A stretch of DNA of 40,288 bases, taken from contig JANTHG010000007.1 of the NCBI GenBank assembly GCA_024762535.1, positions 1-40,288 on the forward strand, read 5' to 3'. This DNA comes from Calditrichaceae bacterium (lineage in GTDB: Bacteria; Calditrichota; Calditrichia; Calditrichales; Calditrichaceae). The position numbers were made by a program, and so were the translations under genes. Below, piece after piece: positions 20,938-25,983 of the stretch; position 1 is the first letter of the stretch, and every line of letters begins with the position of its first letter. The notes beneath the pieces are model-generated. The model was not told the origin of the DNA and made no database searches. It was given only the letters and a program-made list of their open reading frames with translations.

Positions 20938-21966
20938 ATGATTATTGAACAGAAAATTATAAAACAGATGCCCAAAACCGATTTACATTGCCATCTTGAC
21001 GGCAGTGTTCGTATCGACACCATCATTGATGAAGCCAAAAAACAGAATGTGGAATTACCCACAACCGATCGTAAAGCGTTAAAGCGTTTGTTGCAACCGG
21101 GATTAAAATGTAAGAGCCTGGTAGAATATTTACGCCCTTTCGATATTACCCTTTCCGTTATGCAGGAACCCGAAGCGCTTACCCGTATTGCTTATGAACT
21201 GGCGGAAGACGCAGCCAAAGAAAATATCTGGTATCTCGAAGTACGCTATTCGCCTGTGCTGCATACCCGTAAAGGGATGAAATTGACGGAAATTGTGGAC
21301 GCCGTTTTACTAGGTTTACGAAATGCCGAGCAAAAATACCACATCAAAACCGGTGTGATTATTTGCGGGATGCGTAATATTAATCCCGAAACGTCACTCA
21401 CTTTGGCGGAGCTGGCCATGGCGTATAAAAATCAGGGCGTAGTGGCCTTCGATTTGGCTGGCGCGGAAGAAAGCTATCCGGCCAAACACCACCGCGAAGC
21501 TTTCTACCTGATTCTGAACAACAATATTAACTGCACGGCCCATGCCGGTGAAGCCTACGGGCCGGAAAGTATTCACCAAGCTCTGCATTACTGCGGCGCA
21601 CACCGCATCGGCCACGGTACCCGGCTGAAAGAAGACGGCGACCTGCTCAATTATGTAAACGACCACCGTATTCCTTTGGAAATTTGCTTAACCAGCAACA
21701 TTCAGACCAAGGCGGCGCCCTCCTACGAAGCGCATCCGCTTAAGTTCTACTTTGATTATGGCCTACGGGTTACCATCAACACAGACAACCGGCTCATTTC
21801 CAACACAACCATGACCAAGGAATTATATCTCGCAGCCAAATATGCGGACTGGAATATGACAGACCTGAAAAATGTAATTGTGGCGGGATTTAAAAGCGCA
21901 TTTATGCCCATGCGTGAAAAAGCTATTATGCTGAATATGGTTAATGCGGAACTGGAAAAATTTTAA
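20938..21966 (+). CDS. add: adenosine deaminase
   Basis: This enzyme deaminates adenosine and deoxyadenosine to inosine and deoxyinosine. The zinc-binding HxH is in KTDLHCHLDGSVR, the catalytic His/Glu are in NCTAHAGEAYGPESI, HRIGHGTRL supplies another His, and VTINTDNRLIS has the metal Asp. At about 342 aa the length is standard. I start at ATG 20938 (MIIEQKIIK), preceded by GAAAGG; the ORF track begins 5 codons earlier at a TTG. Adenine deaminase or an aminofutalosine deaminase are possible relatives, but the size and motifs favour ADA. Its last 4 bases overlap the convergent small membrane gene. Confidence 0.93.
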   Translation: MIIEQKIIKQMPKTDLHCHLDGSVRIDTIIDEAKKQNVELPTTDRKALKRLLQPGLKCKSLVEYLRPFDITLSVMQEPEALTRIAYELAEDAAKENIWYLEVRYSPVLHTRKGMKLTEIVDAVLLGLRNAEQKYHIKTGVIICGMRNINPETSLTLAELAMAYKNQGVVAFDLAGAEESYPAKHHREAFYLILNNNINCTAHAGEAYGPESIHQALHYCGAHRIGHGTRLKEDGDLLNYVNDHRIPLEICLTSNIQTKAAPSYEAHPLKFYFDYGLRVTINTDNRLISNTTMTKELYLAAKYADWNMTDLKNVIVAGFKSAFMPMREKAIMLNMVNAELEKF

Positions 21967-22208
21967 TTTTTTTTACCGGTTTTAAAATAGCGGCGCAATC
22001 GGGGCATCATCCCTTTGCGGAGTAAGGCCAGGGCCAGAAGGAAGAGCAGGATTCCGGGAATTACCGGCACTACAATGCCCAGCAGGCCTATCAAAACAAG
22101 AATCAGTGCCGTCAGATATTTATTTTTACTAAAACGCAGAATATCTTCCCACAAAAGAGGCGTTCGTTCTTTTTTACGAACCGGAACGGGAAGATTCTGC
22201 TTTTCCAT
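21963..22208 (-). CDS. small PGPGW-like membrane protein
   Basis: This 81-aa protein has a basic N-terminal head (VPVRKKERTP), a hydrophobic hairpin (about residues 32-65, containing VVPVIPGILLFLLALALL), and a basic tail (RLRRYFKTGKKN). The Pro-Gly turn between two short helices resembles small putative transmembrane proteins of the PGPGW/DUF454-like type; function is unknown. Its ATG overlaps the stop of the upstream epimerase gene (TAATG), so it is translated together with the CerR-like gene. That makes it a candidate accessory part of the sphingolipid cluster. Its 3' end overlaps the convergent add gene by 4 bases. Confidence 0.75.
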   Translation of the reverse strand: MEKQNLPVPVRKKERTPLLWEDILRFSKNKYLTALILVLIGLLGIVVPVIPGILLFLLALALLRKGMMPRLRRYFKTGKKN

Positions 22209-23188
22209 TACAGCCAGCCTTTTTCTTTATACCAGTCGATGGTTTCTTTAAAAGAATCTTCCAGGCTGTATTTTGCTTCAAAGCGCAAATCCTGTTTAGC
22301 CCGGCGCGGGCTGCACACCCAAAAATTTTGTTTCATCTCAATCACTTTTTGGCGGTTCAGAATTGTTGTTTTCCCGCTAAACTGCGCCCAGCTTTCCGAA
22401 ACCAAAGCCACACCCTTTAATAAAAGCACCGGGATGCGAATTGGAATCCCCTTTTTATTGAATATTTTTAATGCTAATTCAGCCATCTGAGTCCAGGAAT
22501 AGGGGCGCGGATTTGCGATAAAATAGGTTTTACCTATCGCTTTGGCACGTGTTCCGGCCAGCCAGATCCCTCGCACCAGGTCTTTTACATAAATAAGGCT
22601 TACATATTTATCGCTTCCGCCAATTCTCGGAATAAGCCCTAATTTAACGGTTTTGAAAAAATCCAGTACATCCGTATCGCGCGGGCCAAAAACAGCCGGA
22701 GGTCGTACAATGGTAACAGGCAGACGATCAGCCATGCTGCGCACATAATTTTCCGCCATGAGTTTACTATGGCCATAATCGGTGAGGGGACGCGGGCTGG
22801 CCTCTTCATCTATGGGTTCAATGGAAGAACCCGGCCCGGCTGCCGCCTGGGAACTTACCAGCACAAACCGTTTGACTGATTTACCTCTGTTCAGCACGGC
22901 CTGCACAAGGTTACGGGTACCTTCGTAATTCCCTTTTACATAGGTAATTGCGTCCGCTGCTTTGGTTACACCGGCCACATGGAAAACATAGTCCACATCT
23001 TTCACCGCATTTTTCAGAGAATCCGGATCATCTAAGCTTCCATACACGCATTCCAAATTCAAATCTCTGATCCACTGCATATTGGAAGATCTCCGAACCA
23101 ACGCACGTACTTCATAGCCTTTACGGATCAGTAATTCACTTAAATGACTACCCACAAATCCGGTAGCGCCCGTGATTAGTACTTTCAT
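22208..23188 (-). CDS. NAD-dependent epimerase/dehydratase-type oxidoreductase, CerR-like
   Basis: This extended short-chain dehydrogenase of 326 aa has the NAD(P)-binding motif TGATGFVGSHL at residues 6-16, and the catalytic YGHSK (Tyr138, Lys142) with an upstream VLVSSQAA serine. The C-terminal region is more variable (SWTQMAELALKIFNKKG). It resembles 3-beta-hydroxysteroid dehydrogenase/dihydroflavonol reductase types. In bacteria that make ceramide by the Caulobacter-type route, a protein of this fold (CerR) reduces the 3-keto group of oxidised ceramide. Here it is divergent from serine palmitoyltransferase and a GNAT-like acyltransferase. That role is inferred from context; a nucleotide-sugar enzyme is the alternative. 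The leader shows GGGG 6 bases before ATG. Confidence 0.85.
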   Translation of the reverse strand: MKVLITGATGFVGSHLSELLIRKGYEVRALVRRSSNMQWIRDLNLECVYGSLDDPDSLKNAVKDVDYVFHVAGVTKAADAITYVKGNYEGTRNLVQAVLNRGKSVKRFVLVSSQAAAGPGSSIEPIDEEASPRPLTDYGHSKLMAENYVRSMADRLPVTIVRPPAVFGPRDTDVLDFFKTVKLGLIPRIGGSDKYVSLIYVKDLVRGIWLAGTRAKAIGKTYFIANPRPYSWTQMAELALKIFNKKGIPIRIPVLLLKGVALVSESWAQFSGKTTILNRQKVIEMKQNFWVCSPRRAKQDLRFEAKYSLEDSFKETIDWYKEKGWL

Positions 23189-23356
23189 TTATTACCCCGA
23201 AATCCTGTTTTCGATTTGTCACGAACTTAAAAGAACTGTATATTTTAAGAAAGAATTACATTGGGAGCAAACTTGAATCATTAGGTATAATCACTTAATT
23301 TTACAGAACCTAACTCAAAGTGATTATATTATTATATTGAACAATATGGAGGCAAT
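23189..23356. promoter_or_regulatory. divergent control region of the ceramide-type cluster
   Basis: 168 bases separate the CerR-like gene from spt. A TATAAT at 23286-23291 points toward spt. It overlaps the left arm of a perfect 8-base inverted repeat, aatcactt (23289-23296) and aagtgatt (23318-23325). For the minus direction, TTGCTC and TAAAAT are 17 bases apart. GGAGG (23348-23352) lies 4 bases before the TTG start of spt. The repeat could be an operator or a leader hairpin. Boxes were assigned by eye. Confidence 0.45.
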
Positions 23357-24544
23357 TTGGACATTTTTGACAAATGTTATCAGTTTACACGCGCCAAAGA
23401 AACCATAGAAGCCGGAATTTACCCCTATTTTAAACCTCTTTCCGGGAACGACGGCCCTAAGGTGGAAATGGAAGGCCGTCAAGTTATAATGATCGGTTCC
23501 AATAATTATCTTGGGCTGACCCACGATCCCCGCGTGGTAGAAGCAGCAATAGATGCCACCCGGCGGTATGGCACCAGTTGTTCCGGTTCACGTTTCTTAA
23601 ACGGCACTCTGGATTTACATCTGGAATTAGAAGCCAAAGTAGCCGATTTTTTGGGACGCGAAGCCGCTCTGATTTTCAGCACCGGATATACGAGCAACGT
23701 GGGCGCTATTTCCACCATTGCAGGCAGAGACGATTACATCATTCTCGATAAATCCGATCATGCTTCCATTTACGCCGGAACCTGGGCCGCACAAGGCGCC
23801 ATCGTAAAACGCTTTCCTCATAACAATATGGAAAAGCTCGAAAAATTGCTTTCGGAATTAGACCCTGATAAAGGTAAAATCATTGTTAGCGACGGTGTGT
23901 TTAGTATGGAAGGCGATGTGGTTCAGTTGGACCGTCTCATTCCCATAGCCAAAAAATATAATGCCCGCGTGTATATCGATGAAGCGCACGGTTTGGGCGT
24001 TTTGGGAGACCACGGACGTGGCGCCTGCGAATTTTTGGGACTGGAACAGGATGTGGATATTGTGATGAGCACCTTCAGTAAATCCCTTGCCAGCTTAGGC
24101 GGCTTCGTAGCCGGCCCGGAAGAAGTGATAAATTTTATCAAGCATTTTGCCGGGCCGCTCGTATTCAGCGCCTCTCCCACGCCTGCCGCAACAGCTGCCG
24201 TACTTAAAACAATCGAAATTATTCAAACCGAACCGGAACATATGGATCGCCTGCGCTATATTGGCGATTACATGCGGGAGGAACTGCGATCTCTGGGTTT
24301 TGATATTGGTACCAGTAAAGATACGCCCATAATCCCCATTTACATCCGTAAAGATGAAACCACGTTTAAATTCTGGCGGCGATTATTTGACGAGGGTGTT
24401 TTCGCTAACGCGGTAATCAGCCCGGCCGTCCCTCCGGATCAGGCTCTCATTCGCACCAGCTATATGGCAACGCTTTCGGATGATGATTTGAACAAGGTGT
24501 TAACCATTATGCAAAAAGTGGGAAAAGAACTACATATTATCTAA
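23357..24544 (+). CDS. spt: serine palmitoyltransferase (alpha-oxoamine synthase family)
   Basis: This PLP-dependent enzyme condenses serine with a fatty acyl thioester to 3-ketosphinganine, the first step of sphingolipid synthesis. It is a fold-type I alpha-oxoamine synthase of 395 aa. GSRFLNGTLDLHLELE (about 77-92) is the serine palmitoyltransferase form of this block; glycine C-acetyltransferase has a different text there. DHAS (His135) stacks on PLP, DEAHGLGVLG holds Asp208/His211, and STFSKSLASLGGF has the PLP lysine Lys242. YPYFKPL and DGVFSMEGD also match bacterial SPT. The start is a TTG with GGAGG 4 bases upstream; no in-frame ATG is nearby. The neighbouring acyltransferase and epimerase support the assignment. 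8-amino-7-oxononanoate synthase is unlikely because no biotin genes are nearby. Confidence 0.92.
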   Translation: MDIFDKCYQFTRAKETIEAGIYPYFKPLSGNDGPKVEMEGRQVIMIGSNNYLGLTHDPRVVEAAIDATRRYGTSCSGSRFLNGTLDLHLELEAKVADFLGREAALIFSTGYTSNVGAISTIAGRDDYIILDKSDHASIYAGTWAAQGAIVKRFPHNNMEKLEKLLSELDPDKGKIIVSDGVFSMEGDVVQLDRLIPIAKKYNARVYIDEAHGLGVLGDHGRGACEFLGLEQDVDIVMSTFSKSLASLGGFVAGPEEVINFIKHFAGPLVFSASPTPAATAAVLKTIEIIQTEPEHMDRLRYIGDYMREELRSLGFDIGTSKDTPIIPIYIRKDETTFKFWRRLFDEGVFANAVISPAVPPDQALIRTSYMATLSDDDLNKVLTIMQKVGKELHII

Positions 24545-24558
24545 GCGGGGTCGTTATT

Positions 24559-25692
24559 ATGGCTGCACAAATCATTGAAGTTCGCTCCAAACAGGATAAA
24601 AAACGATTTATCGATTTTGAATGGGAAGCAAACAAGAACTTGCCCCACTGGGTCAGTCCCCTGCGATTGGAACGGCAGGAATTATTAGACCAGGGAAAAA
24701 ATCCTTTTTGGCAACATGCCGAAATAGCTCTATTTTTGGCCGAAGAGGATGGAAAAACCGTGGGACGGATTGCTGCAATCACAAACCAGAATTACAATGA
24801 TTTCCAAAAAGACAATAGCGGATTTTGGGGATTCTTTGAATGTATTAATGATCAGGAAACCGCCAACCTGCTCTTTGATGCGGCTGCCACCTGGCTGCGC
24901 AGCAAAGGCAAAGACAAAATGCTCGGCCCTATGAATCCTTCGACCAATGACGAAGCCGGTATGTTAATTGACGGGTTTGACACCCCGCCCTACATGATGA
25001 TGATCCATAACCATCCTTATTACCCGCAATTAGCCGAGGGATACGGCAACACCAAAGCCAAGGATTTATATGCCTGGTTTGTAGAGTCAGCCAGAGCGCA
25101 GGAAAATATTTCGGACAAGATGCGCCGGGTCTCTGAAAAAATTCTGAAAAAATACAATATAACAATCCGCCAATTAGTGAAAAAAGATTTAAAAAACGAG
25201 ATCAAACTCATCAAAGATATTTACAATAATGCCTGGAGCGCTAACTGGGGATTTGTACCATTTACAGATGCCGAAATAGATAAACTGGCGGCAGACCTTA
25301 AGCCGATTGCCGATGAGCGTATGTTGTTTATTGCGGAAAAAGACGGCAATCCCATTGCTTTCAGCCTGACCCTGCCTAATATCAATGAGATCTTAGCCAA
25401 AATCCCAAATGGGAGACTATTTCCCACCGGAGTCTTTAAATTATTGCTTGGACTTAAAAAGATTAAAACCTTACGTGTACTGGTGTTGGGAGTTAAACGG
25501 GAATTTCAGTATTTAGGGCTGGGCTCCATATTTTATGTTAAGTCGATTCAGAACGCGCTGGAATGCGGATACGAAGCGGCGGAGATGTCCTGGATACTGG
25601 AAGATAATTATCCTATGAATAAAGCCATTGAATCCGTAGGTTCCCGGCGCTATAAAACCTACCGGATATACGAATATTCATTGAATAAATAA
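24559..25692 (+). CDS. GNAT-fold acyltransferase, bacterial ceramide synthase (bCerS)-like
   Basis: This 377-aa soluble protein resembles the YghO-like acyl-CoA N-acyltransferase group. The N-terminal half contains FIDFEWEANKNLPHWVSPL, GRIAAITNQNYNDF and the highly conserved-looking LGPMNPSTNDEAGMLIDGF. The C-terminal half (about 180-370) has a GNAT core, with the acyl-CoA loop VKREFQYLGLGSIF and the closing EDNYPMNKAIESVG...YKTYRIYEY. In the Caulobacter-type pathway a protein of this sort acylates the amino group of 3-ketosphinganine to give oxidised ceramide. It lies 14 bases after spt in the same direction, which is the main reason for the call. Function is inferred from family and context; a generic N-acyltransferase remains possible. 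Confidence 0.8.
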   Translation: MAAQIIEVRSKQDKKRFIDFEWEANKNLPHWVSPLRLERQELLDQGKNPFWQHAEIALFLAEEDGKTVGRIAAITNQNYNDFQKDNSGFWGFFECINDQETANLLFDAAATWLRSKGKDKMLGPMNPSTNDEAGMLIDGFDTPPYMMMIHNHPYYPQLAEGYGNTKAKDLYAWFVESARAQENISDKMRRVSEKILKKYNITIRQLVKKDLKNEIKLIKDIYNNAWSANWGFVPFTDAEIDKLAADLKPIADERMLFIAEKDGNPIAFSLTLPNINEILAKIPNGRLFPTGVFKLLLGLKKIKTLRVLVLGVKREFQYLGLGSIFYVKSIQNALECGYEAAEMSWILEDNYPMNKAIESVGSRRYKTYRIYEYSLNK

Positions 25693-25746: not shown

Positions 25747-25983
25747 TTAATACTCATCGTCGTTGTAATAATCTTCATTGGTAGTGAATGCCGTTGAATT
25801 GTATTTTTTGTCCTTCCGACAGAAATCAAAAAACTCACAATCCTGACATTCATAATCATCACAATTAACCATATTTTCACATGTACCGTTTAAATCCAAA
25901 GTGATGGATTCACGGTAACAAAGAGCTTCATGGTTAAAATGACAATCTTCACAGCCACAAGTCAGGTTTTCAAAATAGCTCAT
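25747..25983 (-). CDS. small cysteine-rich acidic protein, unknown
   Basis: This is a 78-aa protein with nine cysteines (positions 9, 11, 14, 22, 35, 41, 46, 49, 55), grouped as CGCEDC near the start and CDDYECQDCEFFDFC in the middle. The tail is Tyr/Asp/Glu/Asn-rich (NEDYYNDDEY). No signal peptide is visible, so it is probably cytoplasmic. The cysteine spacing suggests two zinc or iron-sulfur binding knuckles. It has a strong Shine-Dalgarno (GGAGGGAGACG before ATG), lies 29 bases after the rhomboid gene, and is followed by a terminator. That argues for a real gene at the end of the proS operon. I do not recognise the family. Confidence 0.75.
   Translation of the reverse strand: MSYFENLTCGCEDCHFNHEALCYRESITLDLNGTCENMVNCDDYECQDCEFFDFCRKDKKYNSTAFTTNEDYYNDDEY

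What the first reader, a model, noticed from the sequence alone, without database searches (positions are those of the whole stretch)
21963..25692. Compact bacterial ceramide (sphingolipid) synthesis cluster
Serine palmitoyltransferase, a GNAT-fold acyltransferase 14 bases downstream and a divergent NAD-dependent epimerase together match the three enzymatic steps of the Caulobacter-type ceramide route (Spt, bCerS, CerR). Seen directly: the SPT block GSRFLNGTLDLH, the PLP lysine, GNAT-like text and the Rossmann/YxxxK motifs. Established: these three families carry out ceramide synthesis in some Gram-negative bacteria. Inferred: that they do so here. The cluster also adds a translationally coupled 81-aa membrane protein and has no dedicated acyl carrier protein in the window, so it may be a distinct version of the pathway.
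Basis: partly seen in the sequence, partly recalled or inferred. Interest (0 to 1): 0.75.

Follow-up and report, generated by a model that had tools for sequence, protein, structure and literature searches.

The report
Ordinary bacterial ceramide-synthesis gene cluster
This stretch carries the standard three-gene bacterial kit for building ceramide, the backbone of sphingolipids, in a little-studied phylum (most likely Calditrichota); the same genes in the same or similar order occur in many other bacterial phyla, so it extends a known pathway rather than showing a new one.

Summary
At 22208-25692 there are intact genes for a serine palmitoyltransferase (SPT), a 377-aa tandem-GNAT acyltransferase starting 14 bases after it, and a divergent SDR/epimerase with intact TGxxGxxG and YxxxK motifs. 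Trees place all three with the characterised ceramide proteins or their published orthologues: SPT with Sphingobacterium and Sphingomonas SPT, away from Kbl and BioF; the GNAT with E. coli YghO and other bCerS; the epimerase with E. coli and Sphingomonas CerR, away from HpnA. SPT has Ala where sulfonolipid SulA has Lys281. The ceramide reading is supported by inference; no lipid was measured.

The 'distinct version' idea is not supported. The divergent EPI<- ->SPT->GNAT layout recurs in relatives and in 20 of 80 loci from several phyla. Having no linked acyl carrier protein is also seen at Bacteroidota-type SPT loci. The 81-aa membrane protein sits next to the reductase here because a methyltransferase and BshC, present between them in many relatives, are absent.

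Verdict: a new member of a known kind. Host most likely Calditrichota. In the open-access papers searched I found no statement of sphingolipids for that phylum.

The parts
23357..24544 (+). Serine palmitoyltransferase (395 aa, TTG start, RBS GGAGG)
   Evidence: NCBIfam SerpalmtaseCFB 521 bits, below its cut-off of 640, next family 372; PDB 3a2b 426 bits vs E. coli Kbl 216; 30-row SPT clade 96/98; Ala at the SulA-Lys281 position
24559..25692 (+). Tandem-GNAT N-acyltransferase, bCerS/CerS (YghO) family, 377 aa
   Evidence: 36-38% identity over full length to E. coli YghO and the Sphingomonas orthologue; 33-row clade 91/90 with proteobacterial bCerS orthologues; AF2 model pLDDT 94, tandem GNAT fold
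22208..23188 (-). Atypical SDR (NAD-dependent epimerase family), CerR-type reductase, 326 aa
   Evidence: 25-row clade 94/93 with E. coli ECD_02852-type and Sphingomonas CerR, Aureispira and Bacteroides; HpnA and Gox2253 fall outside; TGATGFVG, Ser and YGHSK intact
21963..22208 (-). 81-aa membrane protein, sub-threshold DUF454 match; neighbour, probably not part of the pathway
   Evidence: PF04304 26.9 bits, below cut-off; TAATG overlap with the reductase; in many relatives separated from it by a methyltransferase and BshC
23189..23356 (.). 168-bp divergent intergenic region (probable promoters both ways)
   Evidence: sequence; promoter-like sites no more frequent than in shuffles

Best explanation
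A complete bacterial (dihydro)ceramide-backbone cluster with an SPT nearest the Bacteroidota type, in a bacterium that is most likely Calditrichota. The SPT condenses L-serine with a long acyl thioester to give 3-ketosphinganine. The tandem-GNAT enzyme N-acylates the sphingoid base. The SDR reduces the 3-keto group, before or after acylation (unresolved in the literature). Shown: gene content, family membership by tree, conserved catalytic residues, conserved linkage. Inferred: the chemistry, the order of the last two steps, serine as the amino acid, the acyl donor, and any head group. The 81-aa membrane protein is a neighbour, not a demonstrated pathway member.
For: SPT: best PDB match is Sphingobacterium SPT, 426 bits against about 272 for the next sequences and 216 for E. 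coli Kbl; SPT clade 96/98 that excludes Kbl, BioF and the genome's own second alpha-oxoamine synthase; His, Asp, His, Lys and Arg active-site residues conserved, Ala at the SulA-Lys281 position (PMC9304779). GNAT: clade with YghO-type bCerS; YghO and CC_1154 are listed as corresponding genes required for dihydroceramide synthesis in PMC9386255; tandem GNAT fold. Reductase: clade with E. coli and Sphingomonas CerR, catalytic motif intact. Linkage: three genes together in most relatives, in Aureispira, and in 32 of 50 full-flank loci across phyla.
Against: No lipid or enzyme data. The SPT scores below NCBIfam's equivalog cut-off (521 vs 640), as does Aureispira's (487). Support for the joint GNAT and reductase clades is moderate (91/90, 94/93). 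The characterised Caulobacter bCerS and CerR sequences were not in hand; orthologues identified through PMC9386255 stood in for them. Specificity of the SPT for serine cannot be read from the sequence.
Confidence: 0.9

Rival explanations
1. The cluster makes a sulfonolipid (capnine type): the PLP enzyme is a cysteate acyltransferase (SulA) and the other two finish an N-acyl capnine.
For: SulA and SPT share fold and active site (PMC9304779); matches to SulA-type chains exist (192-197 bits).
Against: The key position (SulA Lys281) is Ala in the window protein and in all SPT rows; the SPT match far exceeds the SulA matches (426 vs 192-197 bits).
Confidence: 0.03
2. The same enzymes make a non-canonical sphingoid backbone, for example 1-deoxy or lysine-derived ceramide, because SPT-like enzymes may accept other amino acids.
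For: SPT can take alanine or glycine at much lower efficiency (abstract of PMC10196870), and unusual ceramides in anaerobic marine bacteria are proposed to come from SPT using other amino acids (PMC11334938).
Against: The active-site residues tested are those of serine-using SPTs.
Confidence: 0.07
3. The divergent epimerase is not CerR but another lipid or sugar SDR (HpnA- or OleD-like), and the keto group is reduced by another enzyme (BT_0972-type SDR).
For: Generic HMMs rank HpnA first but far below cut-off (157 vs 368 bits); in Bacteroides the SDR BT_0972 reduces 3-ketosphinganine (PMC9278070); G009 keeps the epimerase without SPT.
Against: The tree puts it with CerR and not with HpnA; it is linked to SPT across phyla; in G009, which has no SPT, the catalytic Tyr has become Phe.
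Confidence: 0.1

Closest known systems
Caulobacter/E. coli-type dihydroceramide cluster (spt, acpR, aasR, cerR, cerS/yghO)
   Same: Homologous SPT, acyltransferase and reductase, clustered
   Different: No AcpR/AasR beside SPT here; SPT not in the proteobacterial clade; no lptFG genes or lipid head-group genes alongside
Bacteroidota-type SPT (Sphingobacterium 3a2b, Bacteroides)
   Same: Closest solved SPT; no ACP beside the gene
   Different: In Bacteroides and Parabacteroides the acyltransferase and reductase homologues are not beside spt; here they are
Aureispira anguillae plasmid cluster (L040) and Ignavibacteriota/Zixiibacteriota loci
   Same: Same divergent reductase<- ->SPT->GNAT layout
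   Different: Sequence divergence only was seen (39-48% identity for Aureispira)

Membership tests
Serine palmitoyltransferase | Falls in the clade of characterised SPTs, apart from Kbl, BioF and other alpha-oxoamine synthases | tested here: met
   30-row clade 96/98; HemA not included in the tree
Serine palmitoyltransferase | PLP Lys, stacking His, Asp, His, Arg; Ala not Lys at the SulA-281 position | tested here: met
   alignment columns, roles from PMC9304779
Serine palmitoyltransferase | Over the NCBIfam SerpalmtaseCFB (NF047600) cut-off | tested here: not met
   521 vs 640 bits; still the best-scoring family by 149 bits; Aureispira SPT also below. A curated naming threshold, not a biochemical feature
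Serine palmitoyltransferase | Makes 3-ketosphinganine from serine | not testable with these tools
   needs an assay
Bacterial ceramide synthase (CerS/bCerS/YghO) | In one clade with orthologues of CC_1154 (YghO etc.) | tested here: met
   support 91/90; CC_1154 itself not in hand
Bacterial ceramide synthase (CerS/bCerS/YghO) | GNAT fold | tested here: met
   AF2 pLDDT 94.1; tandem GNATs top the PDB list, E 1e-13
Bacterial ceramide synthase (CerS/bCerS/YghO) | N-acylates a sphingoid base | not testable with these tools
   needs an assay
CerR reductase | In one clade with CerR orthologues, apart from HpnA | tested here: met
   support 94/93
CerR reductase | NAD-binding TGxxGxxG and YxxxK | tested here: met
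CerR reductase | Periplasmic location as in Caulobacter (PMC11087976) | not tested
   no localisation tool; no signal peptide is evident by eye
Rhodobacterial AcpR/AasR ceramide system | Dedicated ACP and acyl-ACP synthetase with SPT | tested here: not met
   none in the cluster; best AasR match in the genome lies in a 2929-aa frame; about four short ACP-like frames elsewhere, none next to SPT

The most novel reading that the evidence does not exclude
A Calditrichota lineage that also carries LpxC makes sphingolipids whose backbone amino acid or head group is unlike those of Bacteroidota and Proteobacteria.
Probability: 0.12. Interest if true: 0.45.

Novelty: new member of a known kind. Interest (0 to 1): 0.22.

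Why it matters
It adds a lineage that is most likely Calditrichota, with a probable cultured relative, to the predicted sphingolipid producers. It shows that the divergent three-gene layout is shared by several phyla, which makes the ceramide prediction easy to transfer and easy to test. It changes no view of how the pathway works.

Tried and rejected
Distinct ACP-free variant: rejected, since Aureispira, Bacteroides and Parabacteroides SPT loci have no ACP beside spt either. 81-aa protein as pathway partner: rejected as unsupported, because in many relatives its neighbours are a methyltransferase and BshC. Sulfonolipid synthesis: rejected by the Ala at the Lys281 position. HpnA identity for the epimerase: rejected by tree. 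Sphingolipid replacing LPS: not supported, because LpxC is present in the genome. A first SPT tree had two rows read in the wrong frame and was rebuilt. A literature search for Calditrichota with sphingolipid found nothing on topic.

Full report
What is there. ORF calling confirms four genes at the given coordinates. The SPT starts at TTG 23357 with GGAGG just upstream. The GNAT gene starts 14 bases after the SPT stop. The epimerase gene runs the other way from a 168-bp gap, and the 81-aa ORF overlaps its end by one base (TAATG).

Serine palmitoyltransferase. The best NCBIfam model is SerpalmtaseCFB (521 bits, below its 640 cut-off; the next model scores 372). The best solved structures are Sphingobacterium multivorum SPT (426 bits), with alphaproteobacterial SPTs and a Thermus AONS/KBL-type enzyme near 270 and E. 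coli Kbl at 216 (organism names of the PDB chains partly from my own knowledge). In a maximum-likelihood tree the window protein lies in a 30-row clade (96/98) that holds Sphingobacterium, Bacteroides, Sphingomonas and E. coli SPT and excludes E. coli Kbl and BioF and the genome's own second alpha-oxoamine synthase on contig C168. Active-site His, Asp, His, Lys and Arg are conserved. At the position that separates SulA (Lys281) from SPT (Ala) according to PMC9304779, the window has Ala.

Acyltransferase. Sequence libraries are nearly silent (Pfam Acetyltransf_1 21 bits; no NCBIfam). tblastn against plasmid records found full-length relatives inside annotated sphingolipid clusters: E. coli YghO, Sphingomonas, Roseomonas and Diaphorobacter, near ACP, SPT and epimerase genes. 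PMC9386255 lists yghO ECD_02850 and CC_1154 as corresponding genes required for dihydroceramide synthesis. The window protein and these form one clade (91/90), apart from a second GNAT subfamily that includes the Bacteroides finegoldii homologue. AlphaFold2 gives a confident model (pLDDT 94.1, pTM 0.91), and Foldseek finds tandem GNAT proteins (E 1e-13, TM about 0.6).

Reductase. The epimerase-family SDR falls in a 25-row clade (94/93) with the E. coli and Sphingomonas CerR proteins and with Roseomonas, Diaphorobacter, Aureispira, Bacteroides, Rubrobacter and Streptomyces proteins. HpnA, Gox2253 (3wj7), GalE and UXS fall outside. TGxxGxxG, Ser and YxxxK are intact. BT_0972 of Bacteroides, a 3-ketosphinganine reductase of about 31 kDa found by similarity to the yeast enzyme (PMC9278070), was not compared here.

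Layout. Divergent reductase<- ->SPT->GNAT is found in most of the window's relatives, for instance G004, G006, G008 and G048, in Aureispira anguillae, and in 20 of 80 named loci, among them Bacteroidota, Ignavibacteriota, Zixiibacteriota, Gemmatimonadota, Chlorobiota, Planctomycetota and Calditrichota. Of 50 loci with at least 3.5 kb on each side of the GNAT gene, 39 have SPT and 32 have both SPT and reductase; many others use the co-directional order SPT-GNAT-reductase.

The 81-aa protein. It is a short membrane protein with a sub-threshold DUF454 match. In many family and order relatives the string is reductase, methyltransferase, BshC (bacillithiol), 81-aa protein. In the window genome, G006 and G008 the middle two are absent from this place, so the overlap with the reductase is probably secondary. 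G009 (97% complete) has the reductase and the 81-aa protein but no SPT or GNAT, and there the catalytic Tyr is Phe.

Acyl carrier. No ACP or acyl-ACP synthetase gene lies beside SPT. The genome's ACP domains are mostly in very large frames, with about four short ACP-like frames elsewhere. The best match to E. coli AasR lies in a 2929-aa frame. Dedicated AcpR/AasR pairs are described for alpha-, beta- and gamma-Proteobacteria (PMC9386255), and Bacteroidetes SPTs are said to use acyl-CoA (PMC11324152), though acyl-ACP has been argued to be likely (PMC9304779). The donor here is unknown.

Host. G004 is one contig of 4,978,541 bp in the same family, probably Caldithrix abyssi (my inference). The host is therefore most likely Calditrichota; the label of G012 disagrees, and the window's own record name was not available. 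The genome carries an LpxC. It also has a PAP2-superfamily protein (C183, 35% identity to one beside SPT in G005) that could add a head group, but this is speculative.

Known background. PMC11334938 reports SPT-like genes in MAGs of 38 phyla and raises the total of potential sphingolipid-producing phyla to 40; Calditrichota is not named in its main text (the supplements could not be read). The order of acylation and reduction is disputed (PMC11087976).

Verdict. This is a standard three-gene ceramide cluster with a Bacteroidota-like SPT in a host that is most likely Calditrichota: a new member of a known kind, of low to moderate interest.

Noticed in passing
L109:4618-5829 (G009, same family): Reductase and 81-aa protein kept without SPT or GNAT; its catalytic motif reads FGKSK instead of YxxxK, consistent with relaxed constraint after SPT loss.
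   Followed up: partly
L086 (G036, same class): SPT, GNAT and reductase group with the proteobacterial versions in all three trees, which suggests horizontal acquisition.
   Followed up: partly
L042, L043, L188, L193: SPT-GNAT-reductase operons on Actinomycetota plasmids (Rubrobacter, Streptomyces), and an SPT gene divergent from GNAT in Conexibacter: ceramide-type genes in monoderm bacteria.
   Followed up: no
L056, L059, L060 (G005, G016, G007): Extra SDR, CPBP protease and PAP2_3 gene beside SPT-GNAT; the PAP2 protein weakly matches phosphoinositol dihydroceramide synthase.
   Followed up: partly
L052, L082 (G012, G003): A further SPT and GNAT pair of a separate type (a second copy in G012); a patatin-like phospholipase gene directly follows SPT in L052.
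   Followed up: no
L045:7113-9242: Methylocystis iwaonis plasmid: SPT-like enzyme in a longer protein beside ACP, AMP-binding and polyketide synthase genes.
   Followed up: no
window 25747-25983 -: Cys-rich 78-aa protein conserved next to the cluster in ten of the loci compared; no Pfam match for the G004 homologue.
   Followed up: no
window genome contigs C14, C88, C105, C146, C152: Many carrier-protein domains in frames of about 1000-3460 aa, which look like NRPS or PKS genes.
   Followed up: no
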